DNA of 64,000 nt, from positions 1-64,000 of the forward strand of contig JAUNGB010000019.1 in the NCBI GenBank assembly GCA_030524715.1. The letters run 5' to 3'. The notes beneath the pieces were generated by a model that saw nothing but the letters and a program-made list of their open reading frames with translations, ran no database searches and was not told the DNA's origin. The stretch comes from Eubacteriales bacterium. Its GTDB lineage: Bacteria > Bacillota > Clostridia > Lachnospirales > Lachnospiraceae. Both the position numbers and the translations under genes were made by a program. Shown here piece after piece: positions 1 through 13,450 of this stretch; position 1 is the first letter of the stretch; every line of letters starts with the position of its first letter.

Positions 1-2388
1 GAAGCAAAATGGCGCACCAACTGGGAAAAGAACCCGGTAAACGTCAACGATGGAAAAAAACCGAAATATTACTGTCTGGATATGTTCCCATATCCGTCAG
101 GCAACGGACTTCACGTAGGACACTGGAGAGGCTACGTTATCTCCGATGTTTGGAGCCGTTATAAAATGCTTCAGGGATATTACCTGATCCACCCGATGGG
201 ATGGGATGCATTCGGCCTTCCGGCAGAAAACTACGCCATCAAAATGGGCGTGCACCCTGCAATTTCCACCGCAGAAAACGTAAAGAATATCAAATCGCAG
301 ATCAACGATATCGCTGCGATCTATGACTGGGATATGGAGGTTAACACCACAGACCCGAATTTCTACAAATGGACCCAGTGGATTTTCGTAAAAATGTTCA
401 AAGAAGGTCTTGCATACGAAAAAGAATTTCCAATTAACTGGTGTCCGTCCTGTAAGACAGGCCTTGCAAATGAAGAGGTTGTCAACGGCTGCTGCGAACG
501 CTGCGGCGCTACCGTTACCAAGAAAAACCTCCGCCAGTGGATGCTTCGTATTACCAAATATGCAGACCGTCTCTTAAATGACCTTGATAAGCTTGACTGG
601 CCGGAAAAAGTAAAGAAAATGCAGACAGACTGGATTGGCAAATCCTATGGTGCGGAAGTAGACTTCCCGGTAGACGGAAGAGAAGAGAAGATTACCGTTT
701 ATACCACCAGACCGGACACCCTGCACGGCGCTACCTTTATGGTACTCGCTCCGGAACACGCGCTGGCAGCCGGCCTTGCAACTCCGGAAACTCAGGAGGC
801 CGTAGACAAATACATCTACGACGCATCCATGAAGTCCAACGTAGATCGTCTTCAGGATAAAGAAAAGACAGGCGTCTTCACCGGAAGCTATGCCATTAAC
901 CCGTTAAACGGCAAAAAAATCCCCATCTGGCTGTCAGACTATGTACTGGCTGATTATGGTACAGGCGCGATCATGTGCGTACCTGCCCATGATGACCGTG
1001 ACTTTGAATTTGCTACAAAGTTTAATATTCCGATCATCCAGGTAATTGCCAAGGACGGAAAAGAAATTGAAAATATGACAGAGGCTTACACGGATGCTTC
1101 CGGTACCATGATCAACTCCGGAGACTGGAACGGCATGGAATCCGCGGTTCTGAAAAAAGAGGCTCCGATCATGATCGAAAAGATGGGCATCGGACGCAAG
1201 ACTGTCAACTACAAGCTTCGTGACTGGGTATTCTCCCGTCAGCGTTACTGGGGCGAGCCGATTCCGATCGTACACTGCCCGAAATGCGGCGCTGTTCCGG
1301 TACCGGAAGACCAGCTTCCGCTGACTCTGCCGGAGGTAGAAAGCTACCAGCCTACAGGAACCGGAGAATCTCCGCTTGCCGCTATTGACGAGTGGGTAAA
1401 CACCACCTGTCCGTGCTGCGGCGCACCGGCCAAACGCGAGACAAATACCATGCCGCAGTGGGCAGGCTCTTCCTGGTATTTCCTGCGTTACGTAGACAAT
1501 AAGAACGACAAAGAACTGGTATCCAAAGAAAAAGCAGACAAATACCTTCCGGTAGATATGTATATCGGCGGCGTAGAGCATGCGGTACTGCATCTTCTGT
1601 ATTCCAGATTCTATACAAAGTTCCTGTATGATATCGGCGTAATTGATTTTGACGAGCCGTTTACCAAGCTGTTCAATCAGGGTATGATCACTGGTAAGAA
1701 CGGTATCAAGATGAGTAAGTCCAAAGGAAATGTCGTTTCCCCGGATGATCTGGTTCGTGATTACGGCTGCGACTCCTTGAGAATGTACGAGCTGTTTGTA
1801 GGACCGCCGGAACTGGATGCAGAATGGGATGACCGTGGTATCGACGGTGTTTCCCGTTTCCTGAAGCGTTTCTGGAATCTTTCTCTTGACAGCATTGAAA
1901 AAGATGTTCCTGCAACACCGGAAATGGTAAAAACCCGCCACAGAATGGTTCACGATATTACCCAGCGTCTGGAAAGCTTCAGCCTGAACACCGTTATTTC
2001 CGGCTTTATGGAATATAACAACAAGCTGATCGATATCGCTAAGAAGTCCGGCGGCGCAGTTGATAAAGAAACCATTGAAACAGCCGTTATCCTGCTGGCA
2101 CCCTTTGCTCCTCACATTGCAGAAGAGCTGTGGGAGAGACTGGGCCATACAGATTCCGTATTCCATACCCAGTGGCCTGCACATGATGAAGAAGCCATGA
2201 AGGACGACGAAATCGAGGTTCCGGTACAGATCAACGGAAAAACAAAAGCAGTCATCAGTATTCCTGCTGAGATTTCCAAAGAAGACGCCATTGCAAAGGG
2301 CAAAGAGGCTATCGCTGACAAGCTTACCGGCAATGTCGTTAAAGAAATCTATGTACCGAAGAAGATCATCAATATTGTAATGAAATAA
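1..2388 (+). CDS. leuS: Leucyl-tRNA synthetase, 5' end missing
   Basis: Charges tRNA-Leu with leucine in the cytoplasm (class Ia synthetase). The reading frame is open from base 1, so the gene begins before the window. The first visible codons read EAKWRTNWEKNP, and the ATG at 82 is internal. Seen: the HIGH-type motif HVGHWRGY soon after position 100, paired zinc-type cysteines (CPSCKTG, CCERCG), the CP1 editing region with TTRPDTLHGATF and GTGAIMCVPAHDDRDFEF, and the KMSKS loop at 1708-1722. The C-terminal end is complete. A strong hairpin terminator follows directly. Family membership is certain from these motifs. Only the N-terminal tens of residues are missing. Confidence 0.97.
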   Translation, partial: EAKWRTNWEKNPVNVNDGKKPKYYCLDMFPYPSGNGLHVGHWRGYVISDVWSRYKMLQGYYLIHPMGWDAFGLPAENYAIKMGVHPAISTAENVKNIKSQINDIAAIYDWDMEVNTTDPNFYKWTQWIFVKMFKEGLAYEKEFPINWCPSCKTGLANEEVVNGCCERCGATVTKKNLRQWMLRITKYADRLLNDLDKLDWPEKVKKMQTDWIGKSYGAEVDFPVDGREEKITVYTTRPDTLHGATFMVLAPEHALAAGLATPETQEAVDKYIYDASMKSNVDRLQDKEKTGVFTGSYAINPLNGKKIPIWLSDYVLADYGTGAIMCVPAHDDRDFEFATKFNIPIIQVIAKDGKEIENMTEAYTDASGTMINSGDWNGMESAVLKKEAPIMIEKMGIGRKTVNYKLRDWVFSRQRYWGEPIPIVHCPKCGAVPVPEDQLPLTLPEVESYQPTGTGESPLAAIDEWVNTTCPCCGAPAKRETNTMPQWAGSSWYFLRYVDNKNDKELVSKEKADKYLPVDMYIGGVEHAVLHLLYSRFYTKFLYDIGVIDFDEPFTKLFNQGMITGKNGIKMSKSKGNVVSPDDLVRDYGCDSLRMYELFVGPPELDAEWDDRGIDGVSRFLKRFWNLSLDSIEKDVPATPEMVKTRHRMVHDITQRLESFSLNTVISGFMEYNNKLIDIAKKSGGAVDKETIETAVILLAPFAPHIAEELWERLGHTDSVFHTQWPAHDEEAMKDDEIEVPVQINGKTKAVISIPAEISKEDAIAKGKEAIADKLTGNVVKEIYVPKKIINIVMK

Positions 2389-2399
2389 GCGTAAAAGAG

Positions 2400-2443
2400 A
2401 GCCTAACCCTTTGAAATATAAGGAGTTAGGCTTTTACTTTTAT
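2400..2443 (+). terminator. Rho-independent terminator of leuS
   Basis: An 8-bp perfect stem, AGCCTAAC (2400-2407) pairing with GTTAGGCT (2425-2432), is followed by a T-rich run. It lies 11 bases after the leuS stop and marks the edge of the conserved core before an accessory island begins. Confidence 0.85.
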
Positions 2444-2453
2444 TTCATTGATA

Positions 2454-2495
2454 CTAAATCAGCTTTTTGGTTTTCTCGCCTTGATATACTGGCAT
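2454..2495 (-). pseudogene. Possible remnant of an integrase N-terminus
   Basis: On the minus strand an ATG at 2495 opens 13 codons, MPVYQGEKTKKLI, then TAG. Many tyrosine integrases of Firmicute integrative elements begin with a very similar MPVY...EKT... string, so this may be what is left of an integrase after a deletion. The similarity covers only a few residues and is from memory, so this is inference. It lies just downstream of the regulator remnant on the same strand, the usual order in small integrative elements. Confidence 0.25.
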
Positions 2496-2510
2496 TGTAT
2501 CATCTTCCTT

Positions 2511-2687
2511 TCATTCTGTCCGGGCAGGGTGTGAAATGATCGGAGCAAGGCAACGCTTACGATCAGACTTTTTTGCTAACGATTCTATTTGTTCTATAGC
2601 TTTATCCCGGCCTATGTCATTCAATTCTTCAAAGGTACTTATTATTCTTTCAACTTTCTTTGTAAACTTGATGGTAATTCGCGAAAT
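2511..2687 (-). pseudogene. Remnant resembling the C-terminal tail of an XRE-type repressor
   Basis: The minus strand is open from 2687 to a TGA at 2511 with no convincing start codon. The translation contains VERIISTFEELNDIGRDKAI followed by EQIESLAKK, an amphipathic helical tail. Similar tails (ELND.G..KA....) end many phage or ICE XRE repressors, so I read it as a truncated regulator whose DNA-binding half is lost. A 72-aa plus-strand frame across the same DNA (2536-2754) has no ribosome binding site and looks like chance. Confidence 0.3.
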
Positions 2688-2750
2688 TTACATGTTCTTT
2701 TATGCAGCAAGTAACATTACAGATGATACAATGAAGAAGGAGATATGTGC

Positions 2751-3284
2751 ATGAATATTACAAAATGTAAAGCAATCGTCGGGATATCAGCGATTAGCGC
2801 AATTTGCGGGAGCCTTGTTACTGGAAAAGTGATAAAACTGTTAAACACTCGGTTGAATAACAATAGAGTGGGGGTGATGACTCAGAAAGAAAATGGTAGG
2901 AAATATTATGCTCAGGTTATAAGACAGTTGAGATGGCGTTTGGACGATGCATATCAACAAATGCAGCAGGGACAACTCCGTTATGCGCTATATGATGCTT
3001 ATGTAGTATTTGAAGGAACTATGAAAATACTTATTCAGAGCGTATATGGCACTGAGGATATCGGAGATGATGCACTGCAAAATATGAAAATTTGTGAGCA
3101 GGAACATTTACTTGGTAATGATAAAGAATTCATCGGAAGATTACGGGAGGTTATTCATATATGCAGGATTAGTTTACATGACATTGCTGTACAAAATAGT
3201 CTGAATCACGGTAAAGTGCATTTCGCTATTATGCAGGTTAAGGAGTTATTGAATTTGGCTGAAGAGATATTAGTGAAGGCTTAG
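2751..3284 (+). CDS. Unrecognised protein with N-terminal hydrophobic segment and helical HEPN/DUF4145-like body
   Basis: 177 residues. The ATG at 2751 is preferred over the one at 2745 because AAGGAG (2737-2742) is then 8 bases away. A hydrophobic stretch lies near residues 9-28 (IVGISAISAICGSLV...), followed by an all-helical body containing RYALYDAYVVFEGTMKILI and, near the end, REVIHICRISLHD. The layout recalls HEPN/DUF4145 proteins, where an Arg...His motif sits in a similar position, but the canonical motif is not clear and I do not assign a function. It lies in the accessory island, is AT-rich compared with leuS, stands alone, and is closed by a strong terminator. Confidence 0.7.
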   Translation: MNITKCKAIVGISAISAICGSLVTGKVIKLLNTRLNNNRVGVMTQKENGRKYYAQVIRQLRWRLDDAYQQMQQGQLRYALYDAYVVFEGTMKILIQSVYGTEDIGDDALQNMKICEQEHLLGNDKEFIGRLREVIHICRISLHDIAVQNSLNHGKVHFAIMQVKELLNLAEEILVKA

Positions 3285-3286
3285 GA

Positions 3287-3346
3287 CAAAAGGTATGGCA
3301 GAAACTTACGAAAGAATGGATATACAGTTTCTGCCATACCTTTTTG
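3287..3346 (+). terminator. Long-stem bidirectional terminator
   Basis: AAAAGGTATGGCAGAAACT (from 3288) pairs with its complement at 3326-3344, with a 20-base loop and a T run. It immediately follows the stop of the preceding gene. On the opposite strand it can also serve the convergent XRE gene. Confidence 0.85.
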
Positions 3347-3382
3347 CCGAATTGAGTCACAAGAGTAGTGATGTCTGTCATA

Positions 3383-3649
3383 TTATGTCATAGATCGAAA
3401 ATCAAAAATTGTGTTCATGTCGCATTCCAAAATATGACAACAGGCAAATAAAAAGGAAACCGTAGGGTTTTGAGTCCCTTTTTCAATACGGTTGTATGAA
3501 TAGATGGAAATATCAATTCCACTGATTTGAAGTCTTGCAACCATATCAGTCTGTTTGATGTTCATAGACTTGCGCAATCTCGCAATGTTTTTCCCTAAAT
3601 CTATATCGTTTATCTGAATAACACGATCAATACTTTCTTGGCTCTTCAT
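3383..3649 (-). CDS. XRE-family (Cro/CI) transcriptional regulator
   Basis: 88 residues from the ATG at 3649, chosen because GGAGG lies 7 bases upstream. A longer start at 3667 lacks a site. The helix-turn-helix covers roughly residues 25-80: NIARLRKSMNIKQTDMVARL, then a recognition segment ISIYSYNRIEKGTQNPTVSF, then LFACCHILECDMNTIFDF. It is a single-domain DNA-binding protein. It is divergent from the DUF4230 gene, and an inverted repeat ATTGCA-N6-TGCAAT lies between them over that gene's promoter, so it probably controls that promoter and perhaps its own. Function beyond DNA binding is unknown. Confidence 0.85.
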   Translation of the reverse strand: MKSQESIDRVIQINDIDLGKNIARLRKSMNIKQTDMVARLQISGIDISIYSYNRIEKGTQNPTVSFLFACCHILECDMNTIFDFRSMT

Positions 3650-3694
3650 TGTTGTACCTCCACGCAATATTTTATGTATAATTGATAAAAAATA

Positions 3695-3724
3695 ATTGCA
3701 CGAGAATGCAATAAATGGTATTAT
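3695..3724 (+). promoter_or_regulatory. Promoter with overlapping palindromic operator for the DUF4230 gene
   Basis: -35 TTGCAC (3696-3701), a 17-base spacer and -10 TATTAT (3719-3724). The inverted repeat ATTGCA-CGAGAA-TGCAAT covers the -35, a classic place for repressor binding. The XRE gene just upstream and divergent is the natural candidate regulator. That link is inference. Confidence 0.6.
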
Positions 3725-3845
3725 AGAAGTGCAGGAGGGAAAAGAAACACATACAATCGATCACAGATTAGGAACGGTTGGTAGTTTTAGCAGTACATTG
3801 CGGATATGATGCCATAAGAAAATGTACAGGAGGAATTGAGAAGTT

Positions 3846-4478
3846 ATGAGAAAACCAAATCTAGAGACGTCAAGAAATAATGGGAAAATTATGTTTATCA
3901 AACAATTTTTTACTCGCAAATTAATAGCGGGGATTATAATTGTTTTAGTCATTGCAGGAATTATAATAGGAGTACAAAAATTTATTTCTTCCGTTAGCAA
4001 GACTACTAAAATAGGGTTTGAAGACATTGGAGAATTGGCTACACAATCTGTTTATTGCACGGAAGTAAACGTTACAGACGCATCAAGAAAACTATTTGGT
4101 GTTGATATTCCGTTTACACAGAGCAAATATATTTATAGTTATGATATAGTGATTAAAGCAGGTTACGATTTTGAAGAAATTGGATGGGACATAGATAAAA
4201 CTACTATTAAAGTTAAATTGCCGGAGGTTCAAATATTAAGTAGTGAAATAAATATGGATTCATTTAAATTGTACCACGAAGAAGAAAGCGTTTTCCGACA
4301 AATTACAATGTCGGAAAATAATGCTGCAATAAAATCAATGAAAGAAAACGCTGAAGAAAACGCTATTGCCAATGGGTTATTGGATAATGCCCGTTGTAAT
4401 GCGGAAACAATATTGACTAGTTTTTTTGCAAATGCATATAATTTGGAAAAATATGAGATAATTTTTGAAGGTAAGTAG
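3846..4478 (+). CDS. DUF4230 single-pass membrane protein
   Basis: 210 residues. After a short basic N-terminus (or from the second Met, MFIKQFF) there is a membrane helix at about residues 27-49 (LIAGIIIVLVIAGIIIGVQ). The rest would be outside the cell. The body matches DUF4230: a predicted beta-rich stretch YSYDIVIKAGYDFEEIGWDI followed by TTIKVKLPEVQILSSEINMD, then a long amphipathic helix and a C-terminal ...ILTSFFANAYNLEKYEIIFE. DUF4230 has no established biochemical role. AGGAGG lies 12 bases before the ATG. A tiny membrane peptide follows 11 bases downstream and may be co-expressed. AT-rich, in the accessory island. Confidence 0.8.
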   Translation: MRKPNLETSRNNGKIMFIKQFFTRKLIAGIIIVLVIAGIIIGVQKFISSVSKTTKIGFEDIGELATQSVYCTEVNVTDASRKLFGVDIPFTQSKYIYSYDIVIKAGYDFEEIGWDIDKTTIKVKLPEVQILSSEINMDSFKLYHEEESVFRQITMSENNAAIKSMKENAEENAIANGLLDNARCNAETILTSFFANAYNLEKYEIIFEGK

Positions 4479-4489
4479 GAAGTGTACGT

Positions 4490-4582
4490 ATGAAGAAATT
4501 CTTAAATATTTTCTTAAGGGTATTAATTATCTTTGTCGTAACTATTTCATTAATCTATCTTATATTATTTTTATCAGCTTGA
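4490..4582 (+). CDS. 30-residue single-helix membrane peptide
   Basis: An ATG at 4490 follows a weak AGGAAG site and opens 30 codons: MKKFLNIFLRVLIIFVVTIS and then LIYLILFLSA, ending at TGA 4580-4582. Two lysines precede an almost wholly hydrophobic helix, as in small membrane regulators or type I toxin-like peptides. Its position 11 bases behind the DUF4230 gene suggests one transcript. No homologue is recognised, and coding status rests on the ribosome binding site and composition. Confidence 0.45.
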   Translation: MKKFLNIFLRVLIIFVVTISLIYLILFLSA

Positions 4583-4701
4583 TGATAATAGAGTGAGTAG
4601 AAGGCTGGGAATCATAATTCTTTTACATACATTTAACTGGTAAAAAAACAGATAATGGTAAAATTATTTTTGAAATAGGCAATGGATGGAGGTGGCTTCT
4701 T

Positions 4702-5007
4702 ATGTTCTTAATGACGGTAATTATTCTGATAGTTTTGGGAGTTATAGGATTCTATATTACGAAAAGATATGATATGAGCGAAAAAACAGACAAAGGAATA
4801 GAAGTCTGTTATTGGAAATTAAGTTACAGGCGAAAATTCATCAGAACATTGTGGTTTATTCCTGTATCTATTATTATAATTATAGCATTTTATAAGCAAT
4901 CCCAATCATATACTTTTGCAGGGATAATTGGCGCTATGCTTTTTATATTAACTTTTGTTCAAGCTATCTATAATTACAAAAAATGGAAAAATGAAATTGA
5001 GTCATAG
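4702..5007 (+). CDS. Small three-helix membrane protein, function unknown
   Basis: 101 residues with GGAGG upstream of the ATG at 4702. Membrane segments lie at about residues 2-19 (FLMTVIILIVLGVIGFYI), 50-63 (WFIPVSIIIIIAF) and 70-90 (FAGIIGAMLFILTFVQAIY), with a basic loop between the first and second (KLSYRRKFIRT). The length and pattern recall SdpI/immunity-type small membrane proteins, but there is no diagnostic motif and I do not assign it. AT-rich, last gene before the first copy of the 231-bp direct repeat. Confidence 0.65.
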   Translation: MFLMTVIILIVLGVIGFYITKRYDMSEKTDKGIEVCYWKLSYRRKFIRTLWFIPVSIIIIIAFYKQSQSYTFAGIIGAMLFILTFVQAIYNYKKWKNEIES

Positions 5008-5044
5008 AATTTGTCCGGATTCTGACATTGACAAGAAAAAATAA

Positions 5045-5096
5045 GAGATAGCCGTTCCTGAACTTTGACAAGAGCAGGATGGCTATTTCTTATTTT
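5045..5096. terminator. Hairpin terminator, left repeat copy
   Basis: GATAGCCGTTCCTG pairs with CAGGATGGCTATTTC and is followed by TTATTTTT. The equivalent hairpin in the right copy has CAGGACGGC, so one change keeps pairing as a G-U pair. It would stop transcription from the small membrane protein gene upstream. Confidence 0.75.
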
Positions 5097-5179
5097 TCAA
5101 ATCTCAGTACAAATGGTTTTCGCCTCAGAGCGTGTTTGAAAATTACTCTGACGGGCGAAATAGTGTATACATCCTACTA

Positions 5180-5273
5180 TCACAAAATCCTCGTTGTCCA
5201 CTTACTGCAGTCCCACACATCCGACACCACATCCTGATAGAACTCCGGCTCATGGCAGATGAGAAGGATGCCT
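5180..5273 (-). pseudogene. Duplicated 3' tail of the ABC-F gene (last about 31 codons)
   Basis: The part of the left repeat corresponding to 7754-7847 is the end of the ABC-F coding sequence (EFYQDVVSDVWDCSKWTTRI and its stop). Homology stops at about 5273, after which the sequence is unrelated. There is no start and no upstream part, so it cannot make a protein. It is a footprint of the event that placed the ATPase/TOPRIM module here. Confidence 0.85.
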
Positions 5274-5391
5274 TAACAGTTGCTTTCTGCAATGATACTG
5301 GGTCAGATTTGAACGAAAAAGTGGGGCGATTTTACGGAAGAACCATTTTTTTATTGAAATCTTTCAATTCTCGAGAACAATAAAATAATAT

Positions 5392-5452
5392 CGTTAAAAA
5401 GATTAACGAAATCAGAATAAGAATTGACTTAACGGAAATCCTAACATATAAT
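5392..5452 (+). promoter_or_regulatory. Promoter and probable operator of the ATPase/TOPRIM operon
   Basis: -35 TTGACT (5424-5429), exactly 17 bases, then -10 TATAAT (5447-5452). A perfect inverted repeat CGTTAA-AAAGA-TTAACG lies at 5392-5408, and a third TTAACG half-site at 5429-5434 overlaps the -35. The longer direct repeat TTAACGAAATC / TTAACGGAAATC supports a bound regulator. No regulator gene is inside the repeats, so the protein would have to come from elsewhere. Confidence 0.7.
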
Positions 5453-5481
5453 AAAAGAAAAAGCAAAGGGGGTATATTGCA

Positions 5482-6870
5482 ATGCGTCATATCATTCGTC
5501 TGGTAGCGATGGAAATAGAGAATATTAAAAACGTTGGATATGGCAGGCTGGAGTTCTCCCAGGGAAAGAGCGGAAGTATCTTGGGGATCTACGGACAGAA
5601 CGGTTCCGGGAAAACGGTAGTTGTGGACTGCATGGTACTTCTGAAATGTCTGCTTTCCGGAAGGCGGATACCGTCTCATTTTTATCATTATATCAATGTG
5701 CTCAGCAAGAGCGGCCATGTTACTTATGAATTTGAGATCCGGGCAGATGAAGGCACTGTGTTCGTACAATATGAAGTGGAGTTGACAAAGAACGGAGAGA
5801 ACAACTTCTGCCTGAGTGGGGAAAAGCTCAGCATGAAGAAGCTGGAAGAGGGGAAACAGACACGTCTGACGCCTGTTTTTGATTATCGCAAAGGAGAGAA
5901 AGAGTTGTTCCGCCCGTTGAAATACTATTCCGTTTTTGAGAGAGAGATGGAGAGTATGGTAGCTCTGGGCATAGCGCAGCAGACTGCAGAGAATTTCAAT
6001 GAGGAGAAACAGGTCCCGGAAATTGGTTCCTTCCTGTTCTCAAAAAAAGCGCAGGAAGTGTTTGGGAAAGTACAAGGGGAAGCTGGAAAAATATATGCGC
6101 TCACAAAACCACTGCAGAATTATGGATTGTATGACATGGCAGTGATTGAGAACGCATATTATGGGCTTCTGGCTCTGAATCTGGATACCATCCCTGTGAA
6201 TGTGGACTGGCCGGATGCCATGAAACCGAAGATTACGGGAATTATGCTCAAACTGACGGACATCAATGTGGTGCCGAAAGAAATTTTTCCTTATGTAAAA
6301 AGCACCATTGAGCAGATTAATGTTGTCATGGGATCCCTGGTTCCGGATATCCGGATTGAGATTTACAATGCATTTGAGAAACTAACAGAGAAGGGGAAAG
6401 ACGGGATTCAGTTTGAAGTTATTACGATCCGGGGCGAGGCACGGATTCCTCTGCTGTATGAGTCGGCCGGTATTAAGAAGCTGATTTCTATATGCAGTAA
6501 TTTGGTGGCCTGCTATAACCGAGAATCCTACTGTCTGGTCGTGGATGAACTCGATTCCGGCATCTATGAATATTTGCTGGGAGAGTGCCTGGAGGTCATG
6601 CAGGAGAAAGCGAAAGGCCAGCTGATCTTTACCTCCCATAATCTGCGCCCGTTGGAAGTCCTGCAAAATGAGTTCCTTATCTATACCACCGTCAATCCGA
6701 ATAACCGCTACATCAAATCAGCCTATATTAAAAATACGCAGAATACAAGGCTTTCCTATCTGCGGAGCATCAAACTGGGCGGTCAGAAGGAGAAACTTTA
6801 TAACGAAACAAATATCTATGAGATGGAGCTGGCGATGCGCCGGGCCGGGAAGGTAGGCGCCCATGACTAA
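5482..6870 (+). CDS. AAA-family ATPase (AAA15/AAA21, OLD/RloA-like), probable defence protein
   Basis: 462 residues. Walker A GQNGSGKT at residues 38-45, directly after an SMC-like N-terminus (VAMEIENIKNVG). Late in the chain come an ABC-signature-like segment LLYESAGIKKLISICS, Walker B LVVDELDSGIY (D355, E356) and the switch histidine in FTSHNLRPLE (H386). This is the layout of the AAA15/AAA21 ATPases found in OLD-like, AbiL, RloAB and PARIS systems. GGGGG lies ahead of the ATG. Its stop overlaps the start of the TOPRIM-like gene by 8 bases, so the two are translationally coupled. By analogy with those systems it would sense infection and gate its partner. That is inference. Which named subtype, if any, is not decided. 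Confidence 0.85.
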   Translation: MRHIIRLVAMEIENIKNVGYGRLEFSQGKSGSILGIYGQNGSGKTVVVDCMVLLKCLLSGRRIPSHFYHYINVLSKSGHVTYEFEIRADEGTVFVQYEVELTKNGENNFCLSGEKLSMKKLEEGKQTRLTPVFDYRKGEKELFRPLKYYSVFEREMESMVALGIAQQTAENFNEEKQVPEIGSFLFSKKAQEVFGKVQGEAGKIYALTKPLQNYGLYDMAVIENAYYGLLALNLDTIPVNVDWPDAMKPKITGIMLKLTDINVVPKEIFPYVKSTIEQINVVMGSLVPDIRIEIYNAFEKLTEKGKDGIQFEVITIRGEARIPLLYESAGIKKLISICSNLVACYNRESYCLVVDELDSGIYEYLLGECLEVMQEKAKGQLIFTSHNLRPLEVLQNEFLIYTTVNPNNRYIKSAYIKNTQNTRLSYLRSIKLGGQKEKLYNETNIYEMELAMRRAGKVGAHD

Positions 6871-7576
6871 AAAGATTATCCTGCTTCTGGTAGAAGGTCC
6901 TACAGATGAAGACGCTCTGGCTCTTGTGTACTCCAAACTGGTCAGGGAGCATGACCTGGAATTTGATGTTCTCCATACGGACATTACAGCGGGGGAGGAC
7001 ATGACGGTGAAATACATTGCAGATCGGATTCAGGCAGAGGTGGCAGAATATTTACGAAAGCATCCGTACATCATAAAGGAAGACATCCTGAAGGTAGTCC
7101 AGATTATTGATACCGATGGCGCTTTCATCACGACCTCCCATATTCGTCAGTCAGACACAGGGAAAACCGAATATTTTGATACTTACATTGCAGCAAAGAA
7201 TAAAGACCGGTTGATCCGGCGCAATATAAGTAAGCGGAGGATCGTCTACCACCTGATGAAATCGGAAGAAGTGGCAGATTTCCCATACGAAATTTATTAT
7301 TTTTCCAGAAACCTGGAGCATGTACTCCATGATATTTCAGAGAATCTGGATGACGATGCGAAGGAAGACCTGGCATATGAAGTTGCGATGCGGTACAAGG
7401 ACCATCCGGAAGAATTTCTTCAGTTTTTGTATGACGACGCCTTTCATGTGCCGGGAACCTATGGAGAAACCTGGGAATTTATCATGGAAGATGTAAAATC
7501 TCTTGGGAGATATTCTAATATGGCGGTATTTTTTGAGAGACTGGGGATTACAGTGGAAGAAACGGAATTGTTGTAA
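6863..7576 (+). CDS. TOPRIM-like nuclease partner of the AAA ATPase
   Basis: 237 residues. The N-terminus IILLLVEGPTDEDALAL carries the TOPRIM glutamate (E11), and VVQIIDTDGAFI carries the D-x-D pair (D83, D85). The spacing fits a compact TOPRIM fold followed by a helical C-terminal part. TOPRIM partners of AAA15/21 ATPases (RloB-like, AriB-like, OLD nuclease domains) are usually metal-dependent nucleases that act during phage infection. That role is known for the families and inferred here. It starts 8 bases inside the end of the ATPase gene. It is followed by the right copy of the direct repeat, which begins with a terminator. I do not recognise a published family that matches the whole protein. 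Confidence 0.75.
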   Translation: MTKKIILLLVEGPTDEDALALVYSKLVREHDLEFDVLHTDITAGEDMTVKYIADRIQAEVAEYLRKHPYIIKEDILKVVQIIDTDGAFITTSHIRQSDTGKTEYFDTYIAAKNKDRLIRRNISKRRIVYHLMKSEEVADFPYEIYYFSRNLEHVLHDISENLDDDAKEDLAYEVAMRYKDHPEEFLQFLYDDAFHVPGTYGETWEFIMEDVKSLGRYSNMAVFFERLGITVEETELL

Positions 7577-7616
7577 ATTTCTGGCTTACCGGCTCACAAG
7601 CTTTTCAACTTATGAA

Positions 7617-7847
7617 AAGAAATAGCCGTTCCTGAACTTTGACGAGGGCAGGACGGCTATTTCTTATTTTTCAAATCTCAGTACAAATGGTTTTCGCCTC
7701 AGAGCGTGTTTGAAAATTACTCTGACGGGCGAAATAGTGTATACATCCTACTATCACAAAATCCTCGTTGTCCACTTACTGCAGTCCCACACATCCGACA
7801 CCACATCCTGATAGAACTCCGGCTCATGGCAGATGAGAAGAATGCTT
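7617..7847. repeat. Right copy of the 231-bp direct repeat
   Basis: The intact version: terminator hairpin plus the last codons of the ABC-F gene. Recombination with 5043-5273 would excise exactly 2574 bases carrying the ATPase/TOPRIM operon and leave a clean ABC-F 3' end. Confidence 0.95.
7619..7670. terminator. Bidirectional terminator between TOPRIM gene and ABC-F gene
   Basis: AAATAGCCGT-TCCTG pairs with CAGG-ACGGCTATTT, followed by TTCTTATTTTT on the plus strand and by a T-rich run on the minus strand. It serves two convergent genes. Confidence 0.85.
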
Positions 7848-9310
7848 CCGCGGTATTCCTTCAACGCCTGCTTTAACGCCTCCTTTGCATCTACATCCAG
7901 ATGGTTGGTCGGCTCGTCCAGAAGCAGGACATTGGTTTCTTTATTTACCAGTTTGCACAGACGGACCTTCGCCTGCTCGCCGCCGCTTAAGACACGCACC
8001 TGGCTTTCAATATGCTTGGTGGTAAGTCCGCATTTGGCAAGCGCGGAGCGGACCTCATACTGGGTATAGGAAGGAAATTCCGCCCATATTTCATCGATAC
8101 AGGTAGTCTTATTATCACCCTTTACCTCCTGCTCAAAGTAACCTATCTGAAGATTATCTCCAAGCTCACAGCTTCCCTTCAGGGAAGGAATCAGCCCAAG
8201 AATACTTTTGAGAAGCGTTGTCTTTCCGATTCCGTTGGCTCCCACAAGGGCAATCTTATGCCCCCGCTCCATAGAGAGAGTAAGCGGTCGGGAAAGAGGT
8301 TCCTCATAGCCGATCACAAGCTCCTTTGTCTCAAAGATATATTTTCCCGGCGTACGTCCCTGTTTGAAATGAAACTCCGGCTTCGGCCTCTCTGCCGCAA
8401 GCTCGATCACATCCATCTTATCCAGTTTTTTCTGACGGGACATTGCCATGTTCCGGGTGGCCACGCGCGCCTTATTCCGGGCTACAAAGTCCTTTAATTC
8501 GCTGATTTCCTGCTGCTGGCGGCGGTAAGCTGCTTCTATCTGGGCTTTCTTTACTGCATAGACCTCCTGAAAATGGTCATAGTCGCCCACATAACGGTTC
8601 AACTCCTGATTTTCCATATGATAAACCAGATTGATCACCTCATTCAGGAAAGGAATATCATGGGAAATCAGGACAAAGGCATTTTCATAGTCAATCAGAT
8701 ACCGTTTCAGCCATGCAATATGCCCCTCATCCAGATAGTTGGTCGGCTCGTCCAGAAGAAGAATGTCCGGCTTTTCCAGAAGCAGCTTGCCAAGGAGCAC
8801 TTTGGTACGCTGTCCGCCGCTTAGATCCGTCACATCTCTGTCAAGTCCGATATCCAGCAACCCAAGAGCGCGGGCAACCTCATCCACTTTCGCATCAATG
8901 ACATAAAAATCATGCATGGTAAGCGTATCCTGAATGGTCCCCAGTTCATCCATCATATCCATCATTTCATCCTCTGAAGCAGTTCCAAGCTTATCACAGA
9001 TCTGATTCATTTTTTCTTCCATCTCAAAGAGCCAGGCAAAGGCGGACTTGAGCACATCCCGGATAGTCATCCCCTGCGTCAGAACCGTGTGCTGATCCAG
9101 ATAGCCTACACGGACATTTTTCGCCCATTCGATCTTTCCTTCATCGGGCATTAATTTGCCGGTTACAATATTTAAAAAGGTCGACTTTCCTTCGCCGTTG
9201 GCGCCGACAAGCCCGATATGCTCGCCCTTTAAAAGTCGAAACGATACATCATGAAAAATGGCACGATCCCCGAAGCCATGTGTGAGGTGTTCAACATTTA
9301 AAATACTCAT
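7754..9310 (-). CDS. ABC-F family ATPase (YbiT/YkpA-like)
   Basis: 518 residues from the ATG at 9310, which has AAGGAAG 7 bases upstream. A longer frame start at 9370 has none. There are two ABC domains and no membrane segments. The first has Walker A GANGEGKST, signature LSGGQRTK and Walker B LLLDEPTNYLD. The linker is rich in charged helix (QIEAAYRRQQQEISELKDFV). The second has GANGIGKTT, LSGGEQAK and LLLDEPTNHLD. ABC-F proteins act on the ribosome as translation factors or antibiotic-protection factors. The linker does not single out a resistance subtype, so a housekeeping role like YbiT/YkpA is the better guess. Its 3' end is duplicated at 5180-5273. Three 26-bp tandem repeats lie upstream. 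Confidence 0.92.
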   Translation of the reverse strand: MSILNVEHLTHGFGDRAIFHDVSFRLLKGEHIGLVGANGEGKSTFLNIVTGKLMPDEGKIEWAKNVRVGYLDQHTVLTQGMTIRDVLKSAFAWLFEMEEKMNQICDKLGTASEDEMMDMMDELGTIQDTLTMHDFYVIDAKVDEVARALGLLDIGLDRDVTDLSGGQRTKVLLGKLLLEKPDILLLDEPTNYLDEGHIAWLKRYLIDYENAFVLISHDIPFLNEVINLVYHMENQELNRYVGDYDHFQEVYAVKKAQIEAAYRRQQQEISELKDFVARNKARVATRNMAMSRQKKLDKMDVIELAAERPKPEFHFKQGRTPGKYIFETKELVIGYEEPLSRPLTLSMERGHKIALVGANGIGKTTLLKSILGLIPSLKGSCELGDNLQIGYFEQEVKGDNKTTCIDEIWAEFPSYTQYEVRSALAKCGLTTKHIESQVRVLSGGEQAKVRLCKLVNKETNVLLLDEPTNHLDVDAKEALKQALKEYRGSILLICHEPEFYQDVVSDVWDCSKWTTRIL

Positions 9311-9394
9311 AGATAACTTCCTTTCTCGTTTGTCTGAAGCGGAATCCGCAATCTGTTTCCAATCTACCATAAAAGCTATCTGACTGCAAGGAAA

Positions 9395-9470
9395 AAGTAT
9401 GCTTTACAATTGCTCTGTATAAGTATGCTTTACAGTTGCTCTGTATAAGTATACTTTACAGTTGCTCTGT
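9395..9470. repeat. Three tandem 26-bp repeats upstream of the ABC-F gene
   Basis: Units at 9395-9420, 9421-9446 and 9447-9470, each AAGTATRCTTTACARTTGCTCT plus GTAT. They differ at two positions, and the last unit lacks its final two bases. They sit about 85 bases upstream of the ABC-F start and just behind the divergent HD gene promoter. They could be binding sites for a regulator or a replication-slippage product. Confidence 0.9.
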
Positions 9471-9528
9471 TACGGTTAATGTTTTCATTGAAACGAAACA
9501 TGAACAATAACCTGCTGTGAACTCCCTA

Positions 9529-9557
9529 TTGTATCGGGCAAAAAAGCAGAGTATAAT
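9529..9557 (+). promoter_or_regulatory. Sigma-A type promoter of the HD-domain gene
   Basis: -35 TTGTAT (9529-9534), 17-base spacer, -10 TATAAT (9552-9557). The start codon is 83 bases further on. Confidence 0.65.
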
Positions 9558-9639
9558 AAGTCTGTTGTCACAGATAAAAAGAGCGTAAAACGCGCGCTGC
9601 GCAGCAAAATACAGAGAACTTATCAAGGAGGGTATCAGC

Positions 9640-10224
9640 ATGAATGCAAATGTAACAAGAGAAGAAGCACTGACGCTTCTCAGAAAATATAACAAAGAGC
9701 CCTTTCATATCCTGCACGGACTGACAGTAGAGGGGGTTATGAAATGGTATGCAAAGGAAAACGGAGAAGATGAAGAGTTCTGGGGACTTGCAGGGCTTCT
9801 CCATGATGTAGATTTTGAAAACTGGCCGGAGGAACACTGTCAGAAAGCCCCGGAGCTTTTGAAGGAAATAAATGCTTCTGATGAATTGATCCACGCCGTA
9901 TGCAGCCATGGTTACGGAATTTGCTGCGACGTAGAGCCCAATTGCCTGATGGAAAAAATCCTGTTTGCCGCAGACGAATTAACAGGGCTGATCGGAGCCG
10001 CCGCAAAAATGCGTCCCTCAAAAAGCGTGATGGACATGGAAACCAAGAGCCTGAAAAAGAAATTCAAGGATAAACGCTTTGCGGCGGGCTGTTCCAGAGA
10101 CATTATTGAAAAAGGAGCGCAGATGCTTGGATGGGATTTAAACGAACTGTTTGAAAAAACCATCCTTGCCATGCGCTCCTGTGAAGAACATGTAAATCAT
10201 GAGATGGAGGCTCTCGGTCTGTAG
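9640..10224 (+). CDS. HD-domain (HDIG-like) hydrolase
   Basis: 194 residues, with AAGGAGGG before the ATG. The metal-binding HD signature is LAGLLHDVDFENWPEEH near residues 46-62, with an upstream histidine in HILHGLTVEGVM and a later conserved segment LIHAVCSHGYGICCD plus EKILFAADELTGLI. Small stand-alone proteins of this kind are predicted phosphohydrolases. The substrate is not known. It is monocistronic, transcribed away from the ABC-F gene and towards rqcH, with a palindromic element after it. Confidence 0.85.
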   Translation: MNANVTREEALTLLRKYNKEPFHILHGLTVEGVMKWYAKENGEDEEFWGLAGLLHDVDFENWPEEHCQKAPELLKEINASDELIHAVCSHGYGICCDVEPNCLMEKILFAADELTGLIGAAAKMRPSKSVMDMETKSLKKKFKDKRFAAGCSRDIIEKGAQMLGWDLNELFEKTILAMRSCEEHVNHEMEALGL

Positions 10225-10280
10225 ATTTACAGCAATGATTCCTAAATTGAGGAATATATCTTGTGGAAATGAATTTTCAA

Positions 10281-10345
10281 ACACGCTCCAGTACATCATT
10301 GCATTTATTAATTCAAGATTAGTGCAATGATGTGCTGAAGCGTGT
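10281..10345. repeat. Imperfect palindrome between HD gene and rqcH
   Basis: ACACGCT (10281-10287) and TACATCATTGCA (10292-10303) pair with TGCAATGATGTG (10323-10334) and AGCGTGT (10339-10345). It can act as a shared terminator for the convergent genes. Its flank carries the reverse complement of the recurrent AGAGCGTGTTTGAA motif. Confidence 0.75.
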
Positions 10346-10348
10346 AAT

Positions 10349-12097
10349 TTATTCAGTCTCCCGAATACCCGAGATATCCGGCGACGCCATCAGGGAATAG
10401 TTGGTATAATATACCACGAAGCCCGGTTTGGCCCCGCCGGGTTTTTTTACATGTTTTTTCTGGATATAATCGATCTCTACCTTGGGGGCTGTCCGCCCCT
10501 TGGAATAATAGGCCGCAAGCCTTCCCGCCTCTTCAAAGGTCCGATCCGGCAGTTCCCCGTCCTTTGTTTTTACTACCACATGAGAACCCGCCATCTTCTT
10601 GGCGTGAAACCACCAGTCATTTCCCGTTGCAAGCTTAAAGGTCAGCTCGTCATTCTGAAAATTATTCTTTCCCACATAAATATCATATCCGTCGCTGGAT
10701 ATGTAGTGGAAGGGCCTGGACTTTGCCTGCTGCTTTCTGCCTTTTTTGCCGCTGTAATGCTTTTTGATATATCCGTATTCTGTAAGCTCTTCCTTGATCT
10801 GGGCCAGGTCACTCTCAGCCAGTGCGATGTCCAGAGAATTGGAAATGGATTCCAGATGCTCGATCTCGCTCTCGGTCTCAGCCAGTTGCTCTGTGAGGGC
10901 TTCCTCCGTCCGTTTCAGTTTGCCGTATTTATCAAAATACTTTTTGGCATTTTCTCCGGGCGTCATAGTGGGATCCAGCGGGATCGTGATTTCCTCATTT
11001 GTATAATAATTCAATGCCGTAAAGGACTTGCATCCCTCTTCAAGCCCGTATCCATAGGTATTGATCAATTCTCCGTAAACCTTATATTTGTCTTTTTTAA
11101 CGGTATCCTTCATCTGCTTCTGCTGTAACTGGTATTTCTTCCTGTTACGTTCAAGAGCTGTCTGCACCACCCGGCGAAGATCCGAGGATTTCTGCCGGAT
11201 ACGGGTCAGGGTGTTTTTGGACGCGTAGTAGGCTTCCAGCATGGAAGATACGCTGTCAAACTCCTGCGCAGAATATTCGTCTCCATACTGTGTAAGAGGA
11301 AGTACGGCATACTCCACAGGTTCTCCGTCGCGGAAGATAATATTCGGAGTAAAGTCTCCCTCCGCCACCTGTTCCATCATACGGCGGAAGGTATGATACA
11401 GATGCACGCATGCCGTCTCATTCAGGGACTGCGCCGCATCGCTTCCGTCGATGGAGGCCCGGTAGCAGACTTCCTCCGCCATAACAGGGCTGATGCCTGT
11501 AAGGGAGGTATAGATAGCCTTGGAAATATTACAGGGCTTCCGGCAGACCTTCTCAATAAAGACCTCCTCCGTAACGGTAAGCGGCTCATCCTTTTCCTGT
11601 GTCTGCGGGATAAAATATTCTCTGCCGGGAAGCACCTCGCGAACCGAACTCATATGAGAGGAAACATGCTTGATGCTGTCCAGAATCATACGTTTCTCAT
11701 CGCAGAAGATAATATTGCTGTGCTTTCCCATCAGTTCAATGATCAAAAGCTTTTTACAGGGGTCGCCCATTTCATTGAGGTGCTCCAGTTCAAACTCCAC
11801 CACACGCTCCATGCCCGGCTGGCGGATTCCGGTAATCCTTGCGCTTCCGATATGCTTACGGAGCAGCATACAGAAATTGGGGGCGGTAAGAGGGCTTGGT
11901 TTGTTTTTTTCCGTAAAATAAAGAAGCGGAAGAGAAGCGCTGGCCGATAAAAGAAGCCTGCGCTGGCCGCCGGGGCCTTTTGCGGTTATCAAAAGCTCGT
12001 CCGCCTCCGGCTGGGCAATCTTATTAAAACGCCCTCCCTGAAGATTTTTATTTAATTCCTGAACCATTGCAGCAATGGTAATTCCGTCAAATGCCAT
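10349..12097 (-). CDS. rqcH: RqcH (NFACT family), ribosome quality control
   Basis: 582 residues, with AAGGAG ahead of the ATG. It binds stalled 50S subunits and recruits tRNA-Ala to add C-terminal alanine tails to stuck peptides. It belongs to the group long annotated as fibronectin-binding protein A. Seen: NFACT-N start MAFDGITIAAMVQELNKNLQ, LIIELMGKHSNIIFCD near residue 120, a central coiled-coil region (QLQQKQMKDTVKKDKYKVYG and around ALTEQLAETESEIEHLESIS), and the NFACT-R end with NDWWFHAKKMAGSHVVVKT and the basic KKHVKKPGGAKPG. Length is normal for the family. Divergent from the yicC operon, convergent with the HD gene. Confidence 0.95.
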   Translation of the reverse strand: MAFDGITIAAMVQELNKNLQGGRFNKIAQPEADELLITAKGPGGQRRLLLSASASLPLLYFTEKNKPSPLTAPNFCMLLRKHIGSARITGIRQPGMERVVEFELEHLNEMGDPCKKLLIIELMGKHSNIIFCDEKRMILDSIKHVSSHMSSVREVLPGREYFIPQTQEKDEPLTVTEEVFIEKVCRKPCNISKAIYTSLTGISPVMAEEVCYRASIDGSDAAQSLNETACVHLYHTFRRMMEQVAEGDFTPNIIFRDGEPVEYAVLPLTQYGDEYSAQEFDSVSSMLEAYYASKNTLTRIRQKSSDLRRVVQTALERNRKKYQLQQKQMKDTVKKDKYKVYGELINTYGYGLEEGCKSFTALNYYTNEEITIPLDPTMTPGENAKKYFDKYGKLKRTEEALTEQLAETESEIEHLESISNSLDIALAESDLAQIKEELTEYGYIKKHYSGKKGRKQQAKSRPFHYISSDGYDIYVGKNNFQNDELTFKLATGNDWWFHAKKMAGSHVVVKTKDGELPDRTFEEAGRLAAYYSKGRTAPKVEIDYIQKKHVKKPGGAKPGFVVYYTNYSLMASPDISGIRETE

Positions 12098-12151
12098 TTT
12101 GATTCTCCTTTTTCTGATTATGTTTTATAGTATAACACATAAAAAAAGGGT

Positions 12152-12180
12152 TTGACTAGGGTTTTAGAATCGACTATAAT
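12152..12180 (+). promoter_or_regulatory. Promoter of the yicC-remA-gmk-rpoZ operon
   Basis: -35 TTGACT (12152-12157), 17-base spacer, -10 TATAAT (12175-12180), 48 bases before the yicC start. Confidence 0.75.
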
Positions 12181-12228
12181 AAATCTGTATGCAAAGCTAT
12201 AAGAATTTCATGCGAAAAGAGAAAGATT

Positions 12229-13107
12229 ATGATAAAAAGTATGACAGGCTTCGGCCGTGCCGAAGTAGTGACAAATGAACGGAGAATTACCGTAGAATTA
12301 AAATCCGTCAATCACAGGTATCTGGATATGAGCATCAAGATGCCCAAAAAGCTGAGCTTTTTTGAAGGCGCTATCCGTAATCTCATGAAAACCTACATGC
12401 AGCGGGGGAAGGTAGATGTTTTTATTACCTATGAAGATTATACTCTGAACAGGGCGGCGCTGAAATACAACCGGGAACTGGCTAAAGAATACCTGGGATA
12501 TCTCCGTGAAATGGAAGAAGAGTTTGGCCTGGAGAACGATATCCGTGTTTCTACCCTTTCGCGCTATCCGGAGGTATTTACCATGGAAGAGCAGTCTATT
12601 GACGAGGATGAACTGTGGGGCTGCCTGGAAGGACCTTTGCGGGAAGCCTGCGAAAAGTTCGTGGAAACCCGCACGCGTGAAGGTGAAAATCTGAAAAATG
12701 ACCTACTGGACAAGCTTGACGGTCTTGACAGCAAGGTACAGCAGATAGAAGCACGTGCGCCTGAGATCATAAATGCCTACCGGGAGAAACTGGAGCAGAA
12801 GGTACATGAGCTTCTGGAGGATTCCCAGATCGACGACAGCCGCATTGCCGCCGAGGTCGTATTGTTTTCTGATAAAATCTGTAATGACGAGGAAACCGTA
12901 CGCCTTCGAAGCCATATCAGGGAAATGCGGAAGAACCTTCAGGAGAGCGAGGGTATCGGGCGGAAACTGGATTTCATGGCGCAGGAGATGAACCGGGAGG
13001 CCAACACCATTCTTTCCAAGGCTAATGATCTGGAGACCTCCAACATTGCCATCGACCTGAAAACCGAAATCGAGAAGATCCGGGAACAGATACAGAATAT
13101 TGAATAA
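12229..13107 (+). CDS. yicC: YicC/YloC family endoribonuclease
   Basis: 292 residues. Full family signature at both ends: MIKSMTGFGRAE with ELKSVNHRYLDMSIKMPK at the N-terminus, and VRLRSHIREMRKNLQESEGI, GRKLDFMAQEMNREANTILS, KANDLETSNIAIDLKTEIEK at the C-terminus (DUF1732 region). YicC proteins are oligomeric RNases, and the Bacillus member YloC has endoribonuclease activity. First gene of a conserved Firmicute operon with remA, gmk and rpoZ. It sits right behind a consensus promoter. Confidence 0.94.
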   Translation: MIKSMTGFGRAEVVTNERRITVELKSVNHRYLDMSIKMPKKLSFFEGAIRNLMKTYMQRGKVDVFITYEDYTLNRAALKYNRELAKEYLGYLREMEEEFGLENDIRVSTLSRYPEVFTMEEQSIDEDELWGCLEGPLREACEKFVETRTREGENLKNDLLDKLDGLDSKVQQIEARAPEIINAYREKLEQKVHELLEDSQIDDSRIAAEVVLFSDKICNDEETVRLRSHIREMRKNLQESEGIGRKLDFMAQEMNREANTILSKANDLETSNIAIDLKTEIEKIREQIQNIE

Positions 13108-13171
13108 CTTGAATAACAATCCGGAATTCGCCCGTCAAAAACGACAATGATAGCAGAGGAATGAGGCATAA

Positions 13172-13450
13172 ATGGCAAAATTAATCAATATAGGCTTTGG
13201 GAATGTGGTCAATTCTCAGAAAATCGTGGCAGTCGTCAATCCCGACGCCGCGCCTGTCAAGCGTTTGGTACAGAGTATTAAGGGGACGCAGTCCCTGATC
13301 GACGCAACGCAGGGCAGAAAAACAAAGGCTGTGATCGTCACCTCTGACGATTATCTGGTCCTTTCCGCGCTGCAGCCGGAGACCATCGCCAGACGCTTCG
13401 CAGAGGTTTACCAGAATGATATAGACAGGAGCGAAAAAAATGAATCATAA
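13172..13450 (+). CDS. remA: RemA/DUF370 family DNA-binding regulator
   Basis: 92 residues, MAKLINIGFGNVVNSQKIVA and then a conserved middle QSIKGTQSLIDATQGRKTKA. RemA forms ring-shaped oligomers that bind DNA and activate biofilm matrix genes in Bacillus. In Clostridia the family is conserved but the regulon is less clear. The yicC-remA-gmk-rpoZ order is the classic context. The last 11 bases overlap the start of gmk, so the two are translationally coupled. Confidence 0.92.
   Translation: MAKLINIGFGNVVNSQKIVAVVNPDAAPVKRLVQSIKGTQSLIDATQGRKTKAVIVTSDDYLVLSALQPETIARRFAEVYQNDIDRSEKNES

What the first reader, a model, noticed from the sequence alone, without database searches (positions are those of the whole stretch)
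5043..7847. Two-gene ATPase/TOPRIM module between duplicated ends of a neighbouring gene
The operon at 5482-7576 is bracketed by two 231-bp direct repeats (5043-5273 and 7617-7847, constant offset 2574, no indels, few mismatches). The repeat is the 3' end plus terminator of the ABC-F gene. Loss of one copy would restore an uninterrupted locus. This suggests the module arrived as a circle carrying the 3' end, or by capture at the gene's end, and that it can still leave by recombination. It shows how a small defence unit without an integrase can move.
Basis: partly seen in the sequence, partly recalled or inferred. Interest (0 to 1): 0.75.

Follow-up and report, generated by a model that had tools for sequence, protein, structure and literature searches.

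The report
Defence-like gene pair beside orphan gene tip
In a gut bacterium related to Blautia, a two-gene, defence-like unit sits between two nearly identical copies of the end of a neighbouring gene, most likely a scar of how it was spliced in by ordinary host recombination, so the case is real and instructive but probably not a new kind of mobile element.

Summary
In detail: 5043-5273 and 7617-7847 are direct copies (225 of 231 identical, no indels), the only pair found by an ungapped scan of the window (60 nt or more). Each holds the ABC-F gene's last 31 codons plus its terminator. Between them lie an AbiLi-like ATPase gene and a TOPRIM-like gene.

The pair is horizontally mobile: 92% and 88% DNA identity to copies in two genomes whose longer matches to this region are otherwise 66-79%. 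Gene-end copies hugging the pair occur at none of 9 other loci with both flanks held. One locus (L122) is bracketed more widely by a dispersed 120-nt repeat. At the kbl-M18 site, 2 of 6 genomes are filled and 4 empty, without duplication. No second ABC-F tip was found in 20 congeners.

Best reading: one-sided homologous acquisition. The incoming DNA anchored in ABC-F, joined illegitimately at 5273/5274, and left the recipient's old tip as an orphan, as proposed for Vibrio T6SS and Rhs "orphan 3' ends". Loss by recombination between the copies is plausible but untested. No same-species genome was available, so the true empty allele was not seen.

The parts
5043..5273 (.). left repeat: terminator region plus orphan 3' tip (last 31 codons) of ABC-F
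5180..5273 (-). orphan ABC-F coding tip, cut off at 5273
5037..5097 (.). hairpin with long symmetric A/T arms (bidirectional terminator-like), left copy
   Evidence: z -9.0 plus, -8.4 minus
5274..5335 (.). spacer of unknown origin, right after the illegitimate-looking joint 5273/5274
   Evidence: one search found no match reaching into it except a 28-nt piece in G059 (E 0.002)
5336..5385 (+). 84% match to a ~55-nt end sequence present at 5 other places of the same genome, 3 of them reaching a contig end; abuts the module's left edge (mobile-element-end-like, inference)
5392..5408 (.). palindrome CGTTAAAAAGATTAACG; its core GTTAA-N5-TTAAC is kept upstream of the module in 8 of 10 aligned loci (window included)
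   Evidence: homology to other copies starts at 5373-5382 in 5 of 7 loci
5424..5452 (+). sigma-70-type promoter-like site of the module (TTGACT - 17 - TATAAT)
   Evidence: 11 of 12 matches; conserved
5482..6870 (+). AAA/ABC-type ATPase, 462 aa, AbiLi-like
   Evidence: (AAA_21 2.6e-08; PADLOC AbiLi 8.1e-24)
6863..7576 (+). TOPRIM-like protein, 237 aa (VEGPTDE and DTDG motifs)
7577..7616 (.). 40-nt spacer between module stop codon and right repeat
7617..7847 (.). right repeat: terminator region plus real 3' end of ABC-F
7754..9370 (-). ABC-F family ATPase gene (longest ORF; the true start may be about 60 nt inside)
2389..5042 (.). A+T-rich (33% GC) variable part of the leuS-ABC-F interval with an HTH gene, a DUF4230 gene and two unassigned ORFs; these proteins had no hit in the 20 congener regions

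Best explanation
The bracket is a scar of one-sided homologous acquisition. A DNA piece from a close relative, carrying ABC-F, its terminator and, just beyond it, the ATPase/TOPRIM-like pair, paired with the recipient's ABC-F gene and crossed over there. The recipient's old tip and terminator stayed behind on the left as an orphan, while the complete gene end lies on the right. Shown: the duplication, its borders, the horizontal spread of the pair, and the absence of such gene-end copies at the other loci examined. Inferred: the order of events and the linear one-sided route. Also inferred: the pair works as an ATPase sensor plus TOPRIM nuclease-type effector against phage or other foreign DNA, and the two copies can recombine to drop the pair.
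For: The left copy is the truncated one (tip only), the right copy the complete gene end, the order expected when the gene core is the anchor. The 137-nt non-coding part of the repeat was not seen behind ABC-F in 29 of 29 other genus members aligned (by eye), and in 60 other genomes searched no match covers more than its terminator part, so donor and recipient were probably close kin. The left hairpin has long symmetric arms while the right one is cut short at 7617, as if the left flank is native and the right join is where the module meets the terminator. The pair is 92% identical to Candidatus Blautia pullistercoris and 88% to Candidatus Scatomonas, whose longer matches (150 nt or more) to window 1-13500 are otherwise 66-79%. 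Of 9 other loci with both flanks held, none has gene-end copies hugging the pair. At kbl-M18 the pair is present in 2 of 6 genomes that have the two genes adjacent and absent in 4, and neither filled locus shows direct repeats of 30 nt or more. The leuS-ABC-F interval is a variable site in 7 congeners. PMC5361080 (passages) proposes the same mechanism for orphan immunity genes and cites it for Rhs orphan 3' regions; PMC2884548 (passages) describes it for small variable segments in general.
Against: No same-species genome was available, so neither the empty recipient allele nor a donor with the pair but no left tip was seen. The 100 nt between the left tip and the module contain a 50-nt stretch resembling a multi-copy end sequence, so the left side may have had more than one event. 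In one other genome (L122) the pair lies inside a 5.8-kb stretch bracketed by 120-nt, 97% identical direct repeats with a Phage_integrase gene farther off; in two others transposase genes or remnants lie close by. Element-borne transport is therefore not excluded. The sequence alone cannot separate a linear from a circular incoming molecule.
Confidence: 0.47

Rival explanations
1. A circle carrying the pair and the 231-nt ABC-F end integrated by a single homologous crossover (Campbell type), and can leave the same way.
For: Gives exactly the same structure, a module between two direct copies. The 186-nt identical core is long enough for RecA by general knowledge.
Against: Needs the same illegitimate joint plus formation of a circle. 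The 2.3 kb between the copies are filled by the two module genes. No relative of the ATPase was confirmed in IMG/VR by a search that reaches close relatives only, and no exact match to a 48-nt piece of the repeat there. In plasmids and phages only ATPase relatives under 60% identity: 8 and 3 records.
Confidence: 0.15
2. The ABC-F end was duplicated first, or an insertion sequence or other element inserted there first; the pair was put between the copies later, possibly with a mobile element, and replaced earlier cargo.
For: 5336-5385 resembles an end sequence found at five other places of the same genome and stops where the module's conserved left edge begins. Elsewhere the pair is near a Y1 transposase gene (L069), a DDE transposase remnant (L073), or inside a dispersed-repeat bracket (L122). 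The leuS-ABC-F interval is a busy insertion site.
Against: Requires two or more events. No remnant of other coding cargo was recognised between the copies.
Confidence: 0.22
3. Remnant of an integrase-type element that integrates at the 3' end of ABC-F and supplies a replacement tip (as recalled for e14/phage 21 at icd).
For: Long gene-end duplication with differences clustered at the ends. A Phage_integrase gene lies 6-7 kb from the pair at another locus, L122.
Against: No integrase or excisionase between the copies. No second ABC-F tip found in 20 congeners' regions. At the other loci read, the pair is not beside ABC-F.
Confidence: 0.07
4. Assembly artefact or strain mixture: the 186-nt identical core let the assembler join the wrong flanks.
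For: Draft of 210 contigs with 5.02% estimated contamination.
Against: The two copies differ at both ends, so the core-to-5274 joint and the core-to-ABC-F joint should each come from real reads (inference). Window 4702-9370 has only short other matches in this genome.
Confidence: 0.06

Closest known systems
Homology-facilitated illegitimate recombination and the orphan immunity-gene / Rhs 3'-tip arrays it is proposed to create (PMC5361080, passages seen; PMC3240628, start of abstract in listing)
   Same: A conserved gene serves as anchor, the other end joins without homology, and the old 3' end is left as an orphan downstream of the new cargo.
   Different: Here the anchor is an ABC-F gene, old and new tips are almost identical, and the cargo is an ATPase/TOPRIM-like pair rather than an effector with its immunity gene. 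The event itself was not observed.
AbiL (AbiLi ATPase plus AbiLii)
   Same: ATPase matches PADLOC AbiLi at 8e-24, and 26 of 26 aligned members match it; two-gene operon.
   Different: The partner gives no AbiLii match: window protein 0 families at E<=1, and AbiLii is not among the 14 families matched by any of the 26 aligned members.
PARIS (AriA/AriB), MADS mad3/mad4, HEC-01 and PDC ATPase-TOPRIM pairs
   Same: The ATPase matches AriA, mad3, HEC-01A and PDC-M12A models. A few partner relatives match mad4 (3 of 26), HEC-01B (2 of 26) and PDC-M12B (1 of 26) weakly.
   Different: All are distant matches; AriB is not among the families matched; a MADS gene set was not looked for beyond the pair.
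Small variable segments of bacterial genomes (PMC2884548, passages seen)
   Same: Small cargo at a variable intergenic site, probably by illegitimate or homology-assisted recombination. That paper finds 10 to 18% of its segments flanked by repeats, most of them under 30 bp.
   Different: The flanking repeat here is 231 nt and comes from a gene end.

Membership tests
Product of homology-facilitated illegitimate recombination | Homologous anchor at one end of the acquired DNA | tested here: inconclusive
   Complete ABC-F on one side and truncated tip on the other; donor and recipient alleles not available
Product of homology-facilitated illegitimate recombination | Non-homologous joint at the other end, no integrase in the insert | tested here: met
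   The copies stop matching at 5273/7847, and the insert holds only the two module genes
Product of homology-facilitated illegitimate recombination | Recipient allele without the insert exists | not testable with these tools
   No same-species genome held; nearest ABC-F matches are 83% identical; other species carry other cargo at the site
Integrase-driven element at a gene 3' end | Integrase gene in or beside the element | tested here: not met
   No such ORF between the copies; four ORFs in 2745-5007 beside it hit HTH, DUF4230 or no family above its cut-off
IS-flanked composite transposon | IS copies at both ends | tested here: not met
   Only a 50-nt end-like stretch on the left
AbiL abortive infection system | AbiLi-type ATPase | tested here: met
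   PADLOC AbiLi 8.1e-24, 26 of 26 aligned members
AbiL abortive infection system | AbiLii-type partner | tested here: not met
   No AbiLii hit at E<=1 for the window protein or any of the 26 aligned members (14 families listed)
ATPase-TOPRIM defence pair (general kind) | TOPRIM motifs in the partner | tested here: inconclusive
   Invariant E11, D83 and D85 in 26 aligned proteins; Toprim PF01751 in 7 of 26, best 0.0011, not in the window protein; no structure prediction possible
ATPase-TOPRIM defence pair (general kind) | Protects against phage | not testable with these tools
   needs an assay

The most novel reading that the evidence does not exclude
The pair is a portable cassette with fixed edges: homology begins at 5373-5382, just upstream of a conserved palindrome GTTAA-N5-TTAAC, and ends near the last codons. 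It is moved between unrelated intergenic sites by a factor supplied in trans. At this locus the 231-nt gene-end copies make it a reversible on/off unit that the population loses and regains by recombination.
Probability: 0.08. Interest if true: 0.7.

Novelty: new member of a known kind. Interest (0 to 1): 0.36.

Why it matters
It is a clean, small example of how a two-gene defence-like unit may enter a genome without an integrase of its own, and it leaves a readable scar that points to the gene that served as anchor. If the one-sided route is right, orphan gene tips next to defence genes could be used to find many such acquisitions and their direction. If the copies recombine in living cells, the unit's loss rate becomes directly measurable.

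Tried and rejected
Repeat as an intrinsic part of the module: rejected as a general rule. Searches scanned 11 loci. L071 and L074 are not informative because one flank is missing. Of the 9 with both flanks (also compared gapped, flank against flank), L069, L070, L072, L073, L124 and L209 show no match between the flanks. L122 has a 120-nt, 97% pair about 2 kb away on each side, with a third copy elsewhere in that genome. L125 has two short pairs (26 and 30 nt). L123 has two diverged pairs (56 and 71 nt, 73-77%). I had first written that no other locus had flanking repeats; the check found L122, and I lowered the best explanation from 0.50 to 0.47 and raised the element-first rival from 0.20 to 0.22.

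ABC-F tips in 20 congener regions: the extra hits of 35-101 nt lie in the part where the two ABC domains of such genes resemble each other, except one 48-nt inverted hit outside the gene in G044.

Phage or circle origin: ATPase sought in IMG/VR (close relatives only, none confirmed), a 48-nt exact piece of the repeat in IMG/VR (none), ATPase in plasmids (8 records) and phages (3 records), all under 60% identity.

Structured RNA or tRNA at the site: no Rfam match at gathering score in 2389-10500, no tRNA in the window.

Terminator part 7617-7681 as a dispersed mobile element: it recurs in 13 of 61 searched genomes, own included. By eye, 12 of the 14 copies outside the window sit at the end of a small Hol_Tox-like ORF; one was tested (L076).

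Polarising the silent mismatch at 5267 with relatives: both states occur, undecided.

Empty-site test at the L123 site: no informative relative.

Fold of the TOPRIM-like protein: structure prediction switched off, replaced by sequence profiles, which were weak.

Literature on the exact situation: searches returned 2 and 1 papers, none read; I make no claim that it is unpublished.
Full report
Observation. Two direct copies, 5043-5273 and 7617-7847, lie 2574 nt apart with 225 of 231 positions equal and no indel. An ungapped scan finds no other direct repeat of 60 nt or more in the 64-kb window. Identity at the same offset drops to 62 of 200 and 50 of 200 just outside. The six mismatches sit at the ends; 186 nt in the middle are identical, which six random mismatches allowed in about 2 of 10,000 trials. 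This fits later homogenisation of the middle, or alleles that differed only at the ends; I cannot tell which.

What the repeat is. The right copy is the true end of an ABC-F gene on the minus strand (7754-9370; ribo_prot_ABC_F 1.5e-117) plus 137 nt of downstream DNA with two hairpins. The left copy has the same downstream DNA and the last 31 codons, then stops at 5273. Behind ABC-F in 29 other genus members aligned, this 137-nt stretch was not seen (by eye). In 60 other genomes searched, no match covers more than its terminator part. So both copies probably come from the same or a very near lineage. The terminator part belongs to a family that in other genomes of the genus mostly ends small Hol_Tox-like ORFs (12 of 14 copies by eye; one tested, Pfam Hol_Tox 2e-05). 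In the present arrangement ORF 4702-5007 and the module each have a terminator copy behind them.

What lies between. The ATPase (5482-6870) matches AAA_21 and PADLOC AbiLi. The second protein (6863-7576) matches nothing convincingly on its own. An alignment with 25 relatives, chosen for an ORF of at least 200 aa, shows an invariant VEG..D motif and D.D in DTDG, and 7 of 26 members touch Pfam Toprim, best E 0.0011. A hit to the second protein is present beside the ATPase in 33 of 36 distinct relative loci (39 loci given, two fetched twice and one without the ATPase counted out). In six of them (L043, L047, L056, L072, L073, L122) the second ORF is truncated or split while the ATPase ORF is long; at least L073 comes from a metagenome assembly. 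In the family sample, 29 of 200 genomes, own included, hold an ATPase relative at 1e-10; the window's own genome has a second, 39% identical one. The module has its own promoter-like site and a palindrome kept in 8 of 10 aligned loci, absent in the two most distant. Homology to other copies begins at 5373-5382 in 5 of 7 loci and ends at 7548-7549 in 3.

Mobility. The module is 92% identical to a copy in Candidatus Blautia pullistercoris and 88% to one in Candidatus Scatomonas merdigallinarum. Other matches of 150 nt or more between window 1-13500 and those genomes are 66-79%, and some shorter ones are higher, up to 94% for a terminator piece. The closest loci came from one scan that confirmed 6 of 28 pattern matches. 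The neighbours differ: Ku and ligase genes (L071), a DDE transposase remnant (L073), a Y1 transposase gene (L069) and, farther off, a Phage_integrase gene (L122), kbl and an M18-type peptidase gene (L072; named by eye). Of 9 loci with both flanks held, six show no match between the two flanks and none has gene-end copies hugging the pair. Against this, L122 lies within a 5.8-kb stretch between 120-nt repeats, 97% identical, that have a third copy in that genome; L125 and L123 have short or diverged pairs.

A second site. At kbl-M18, six of 41 searched genomes have the two genes adjacent: four are empty with 126-382 nt between the genes, two are filled. The empty genomes' stretch before the M18 gene was not detectable in the filled spacers, where local alignment recovers only the kbl terminator on the left and the ribosome-binding site on the right. 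This suggests that host DNA was replaced rather than duplicated, but the stretch is short and the test weak. A similar test at the L123 site was uninformative.

The site. In 20 congeners' 20-kb regions around ABC-F, 7 have a leuS hit of 90% or more nearby (two others have a 48% hit, not counted), with intervals of 0.8-5.2 kb and cargo that differs, G041 and G021 alike and G023, G042 and G027 sharing one gene type by eye. None of the 20 has a hit to the module proteins there, and no second ABC-F tip was found. These are other species, 83% identical at best over ABC-F, so they show a variable site but not the true empty allele.

Mechanism. The truncated copy is on the side away from the gene, and the complete one joins the gene. 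That is the order left when an incoming piece anchors in the gene core and its far end is joined without homology inside the recipient's tip. PMC5361080 (passages) proposes this for T6SS orphan immunity genes and cites the same idea for Rhs orphan 3' regions. PMC2884548 (passages) describes homology-assisted illegitimate recombination for small variable segments and reports repeats beside 10 to 18% of them, mostly under 30 bp. A circle with single crossover, or an older duplication filled later, gives the same final structure. The 50-nt stretch at 5336-5385 that resembles a multi-copy end sequence, and the element traces near other copies, are the best reasons to keep the element-first rival alive.

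Verdict. The structure is real and the module is mobile between species. The gene-end repeat looks like a local scar rather than a transfer device, and continued excision is plausible but unshown. The function as phage defence is inferred from profile matches only. That the genome is Blautia-like is inferred: G054, in the window's genus, has a contig of the same length as the named Blautia sp. MSJ-19 contig of L070.

Noticed in passing
L071 (Candidatus Blautia pullistercoris) 2-3522: The closest copy of the module lies directly behind Ku and ATP-dependent ligase genes (Pfam Ku 1.4e-47, DNA_ligase_A_M 5.1e-32): NHEJ genes beside an ATPase/TOPRIM-like pair.
   Followed up: partly
window 5336-5385; G000 contigs C162, C6, C160, C32, C11: A ~55-nt end sequence (with TTGAAAACTTTCAA, ending CTCTCAAG) recurs 97-98% identical in five places, three reaching contig ends; probably the end of an unidentified multi-copy element.
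   Followed up: partly
L122 6086-6205 and 11929-12048: 120-nt direct repeats, 97% identical, bracket a 5.8-kb stretch that includes another copy of the module; a third copy lies at the edge of contig C17 of the same genome.
   Followed up: partly
L043, L047, L056, L072, L073, L122: The TOPRIM-like gene is truncated or split while the ATPase ORF is long, as if the effector is often lost.
   Followed up: partly
window 2544-2570: 27-nt, 96% match to L076/L126 just behind the terminator copy there, where the Hol_Tox ORF lies: perhaps a second toxin-gene relic in the leuS-ABC-F interval.
   Followed up: no
L038 / G013 contig C51 15567-16296: The ABC-F gene of this congener appears to lack its middle, the break lying where the two ABC domains resemble each other; deletion or assembly fault.
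   Followed up: no
window 9395-9472: Three tandem copies of a 26-nt unit upstream of the ABC-F gene.
   Followed up: no
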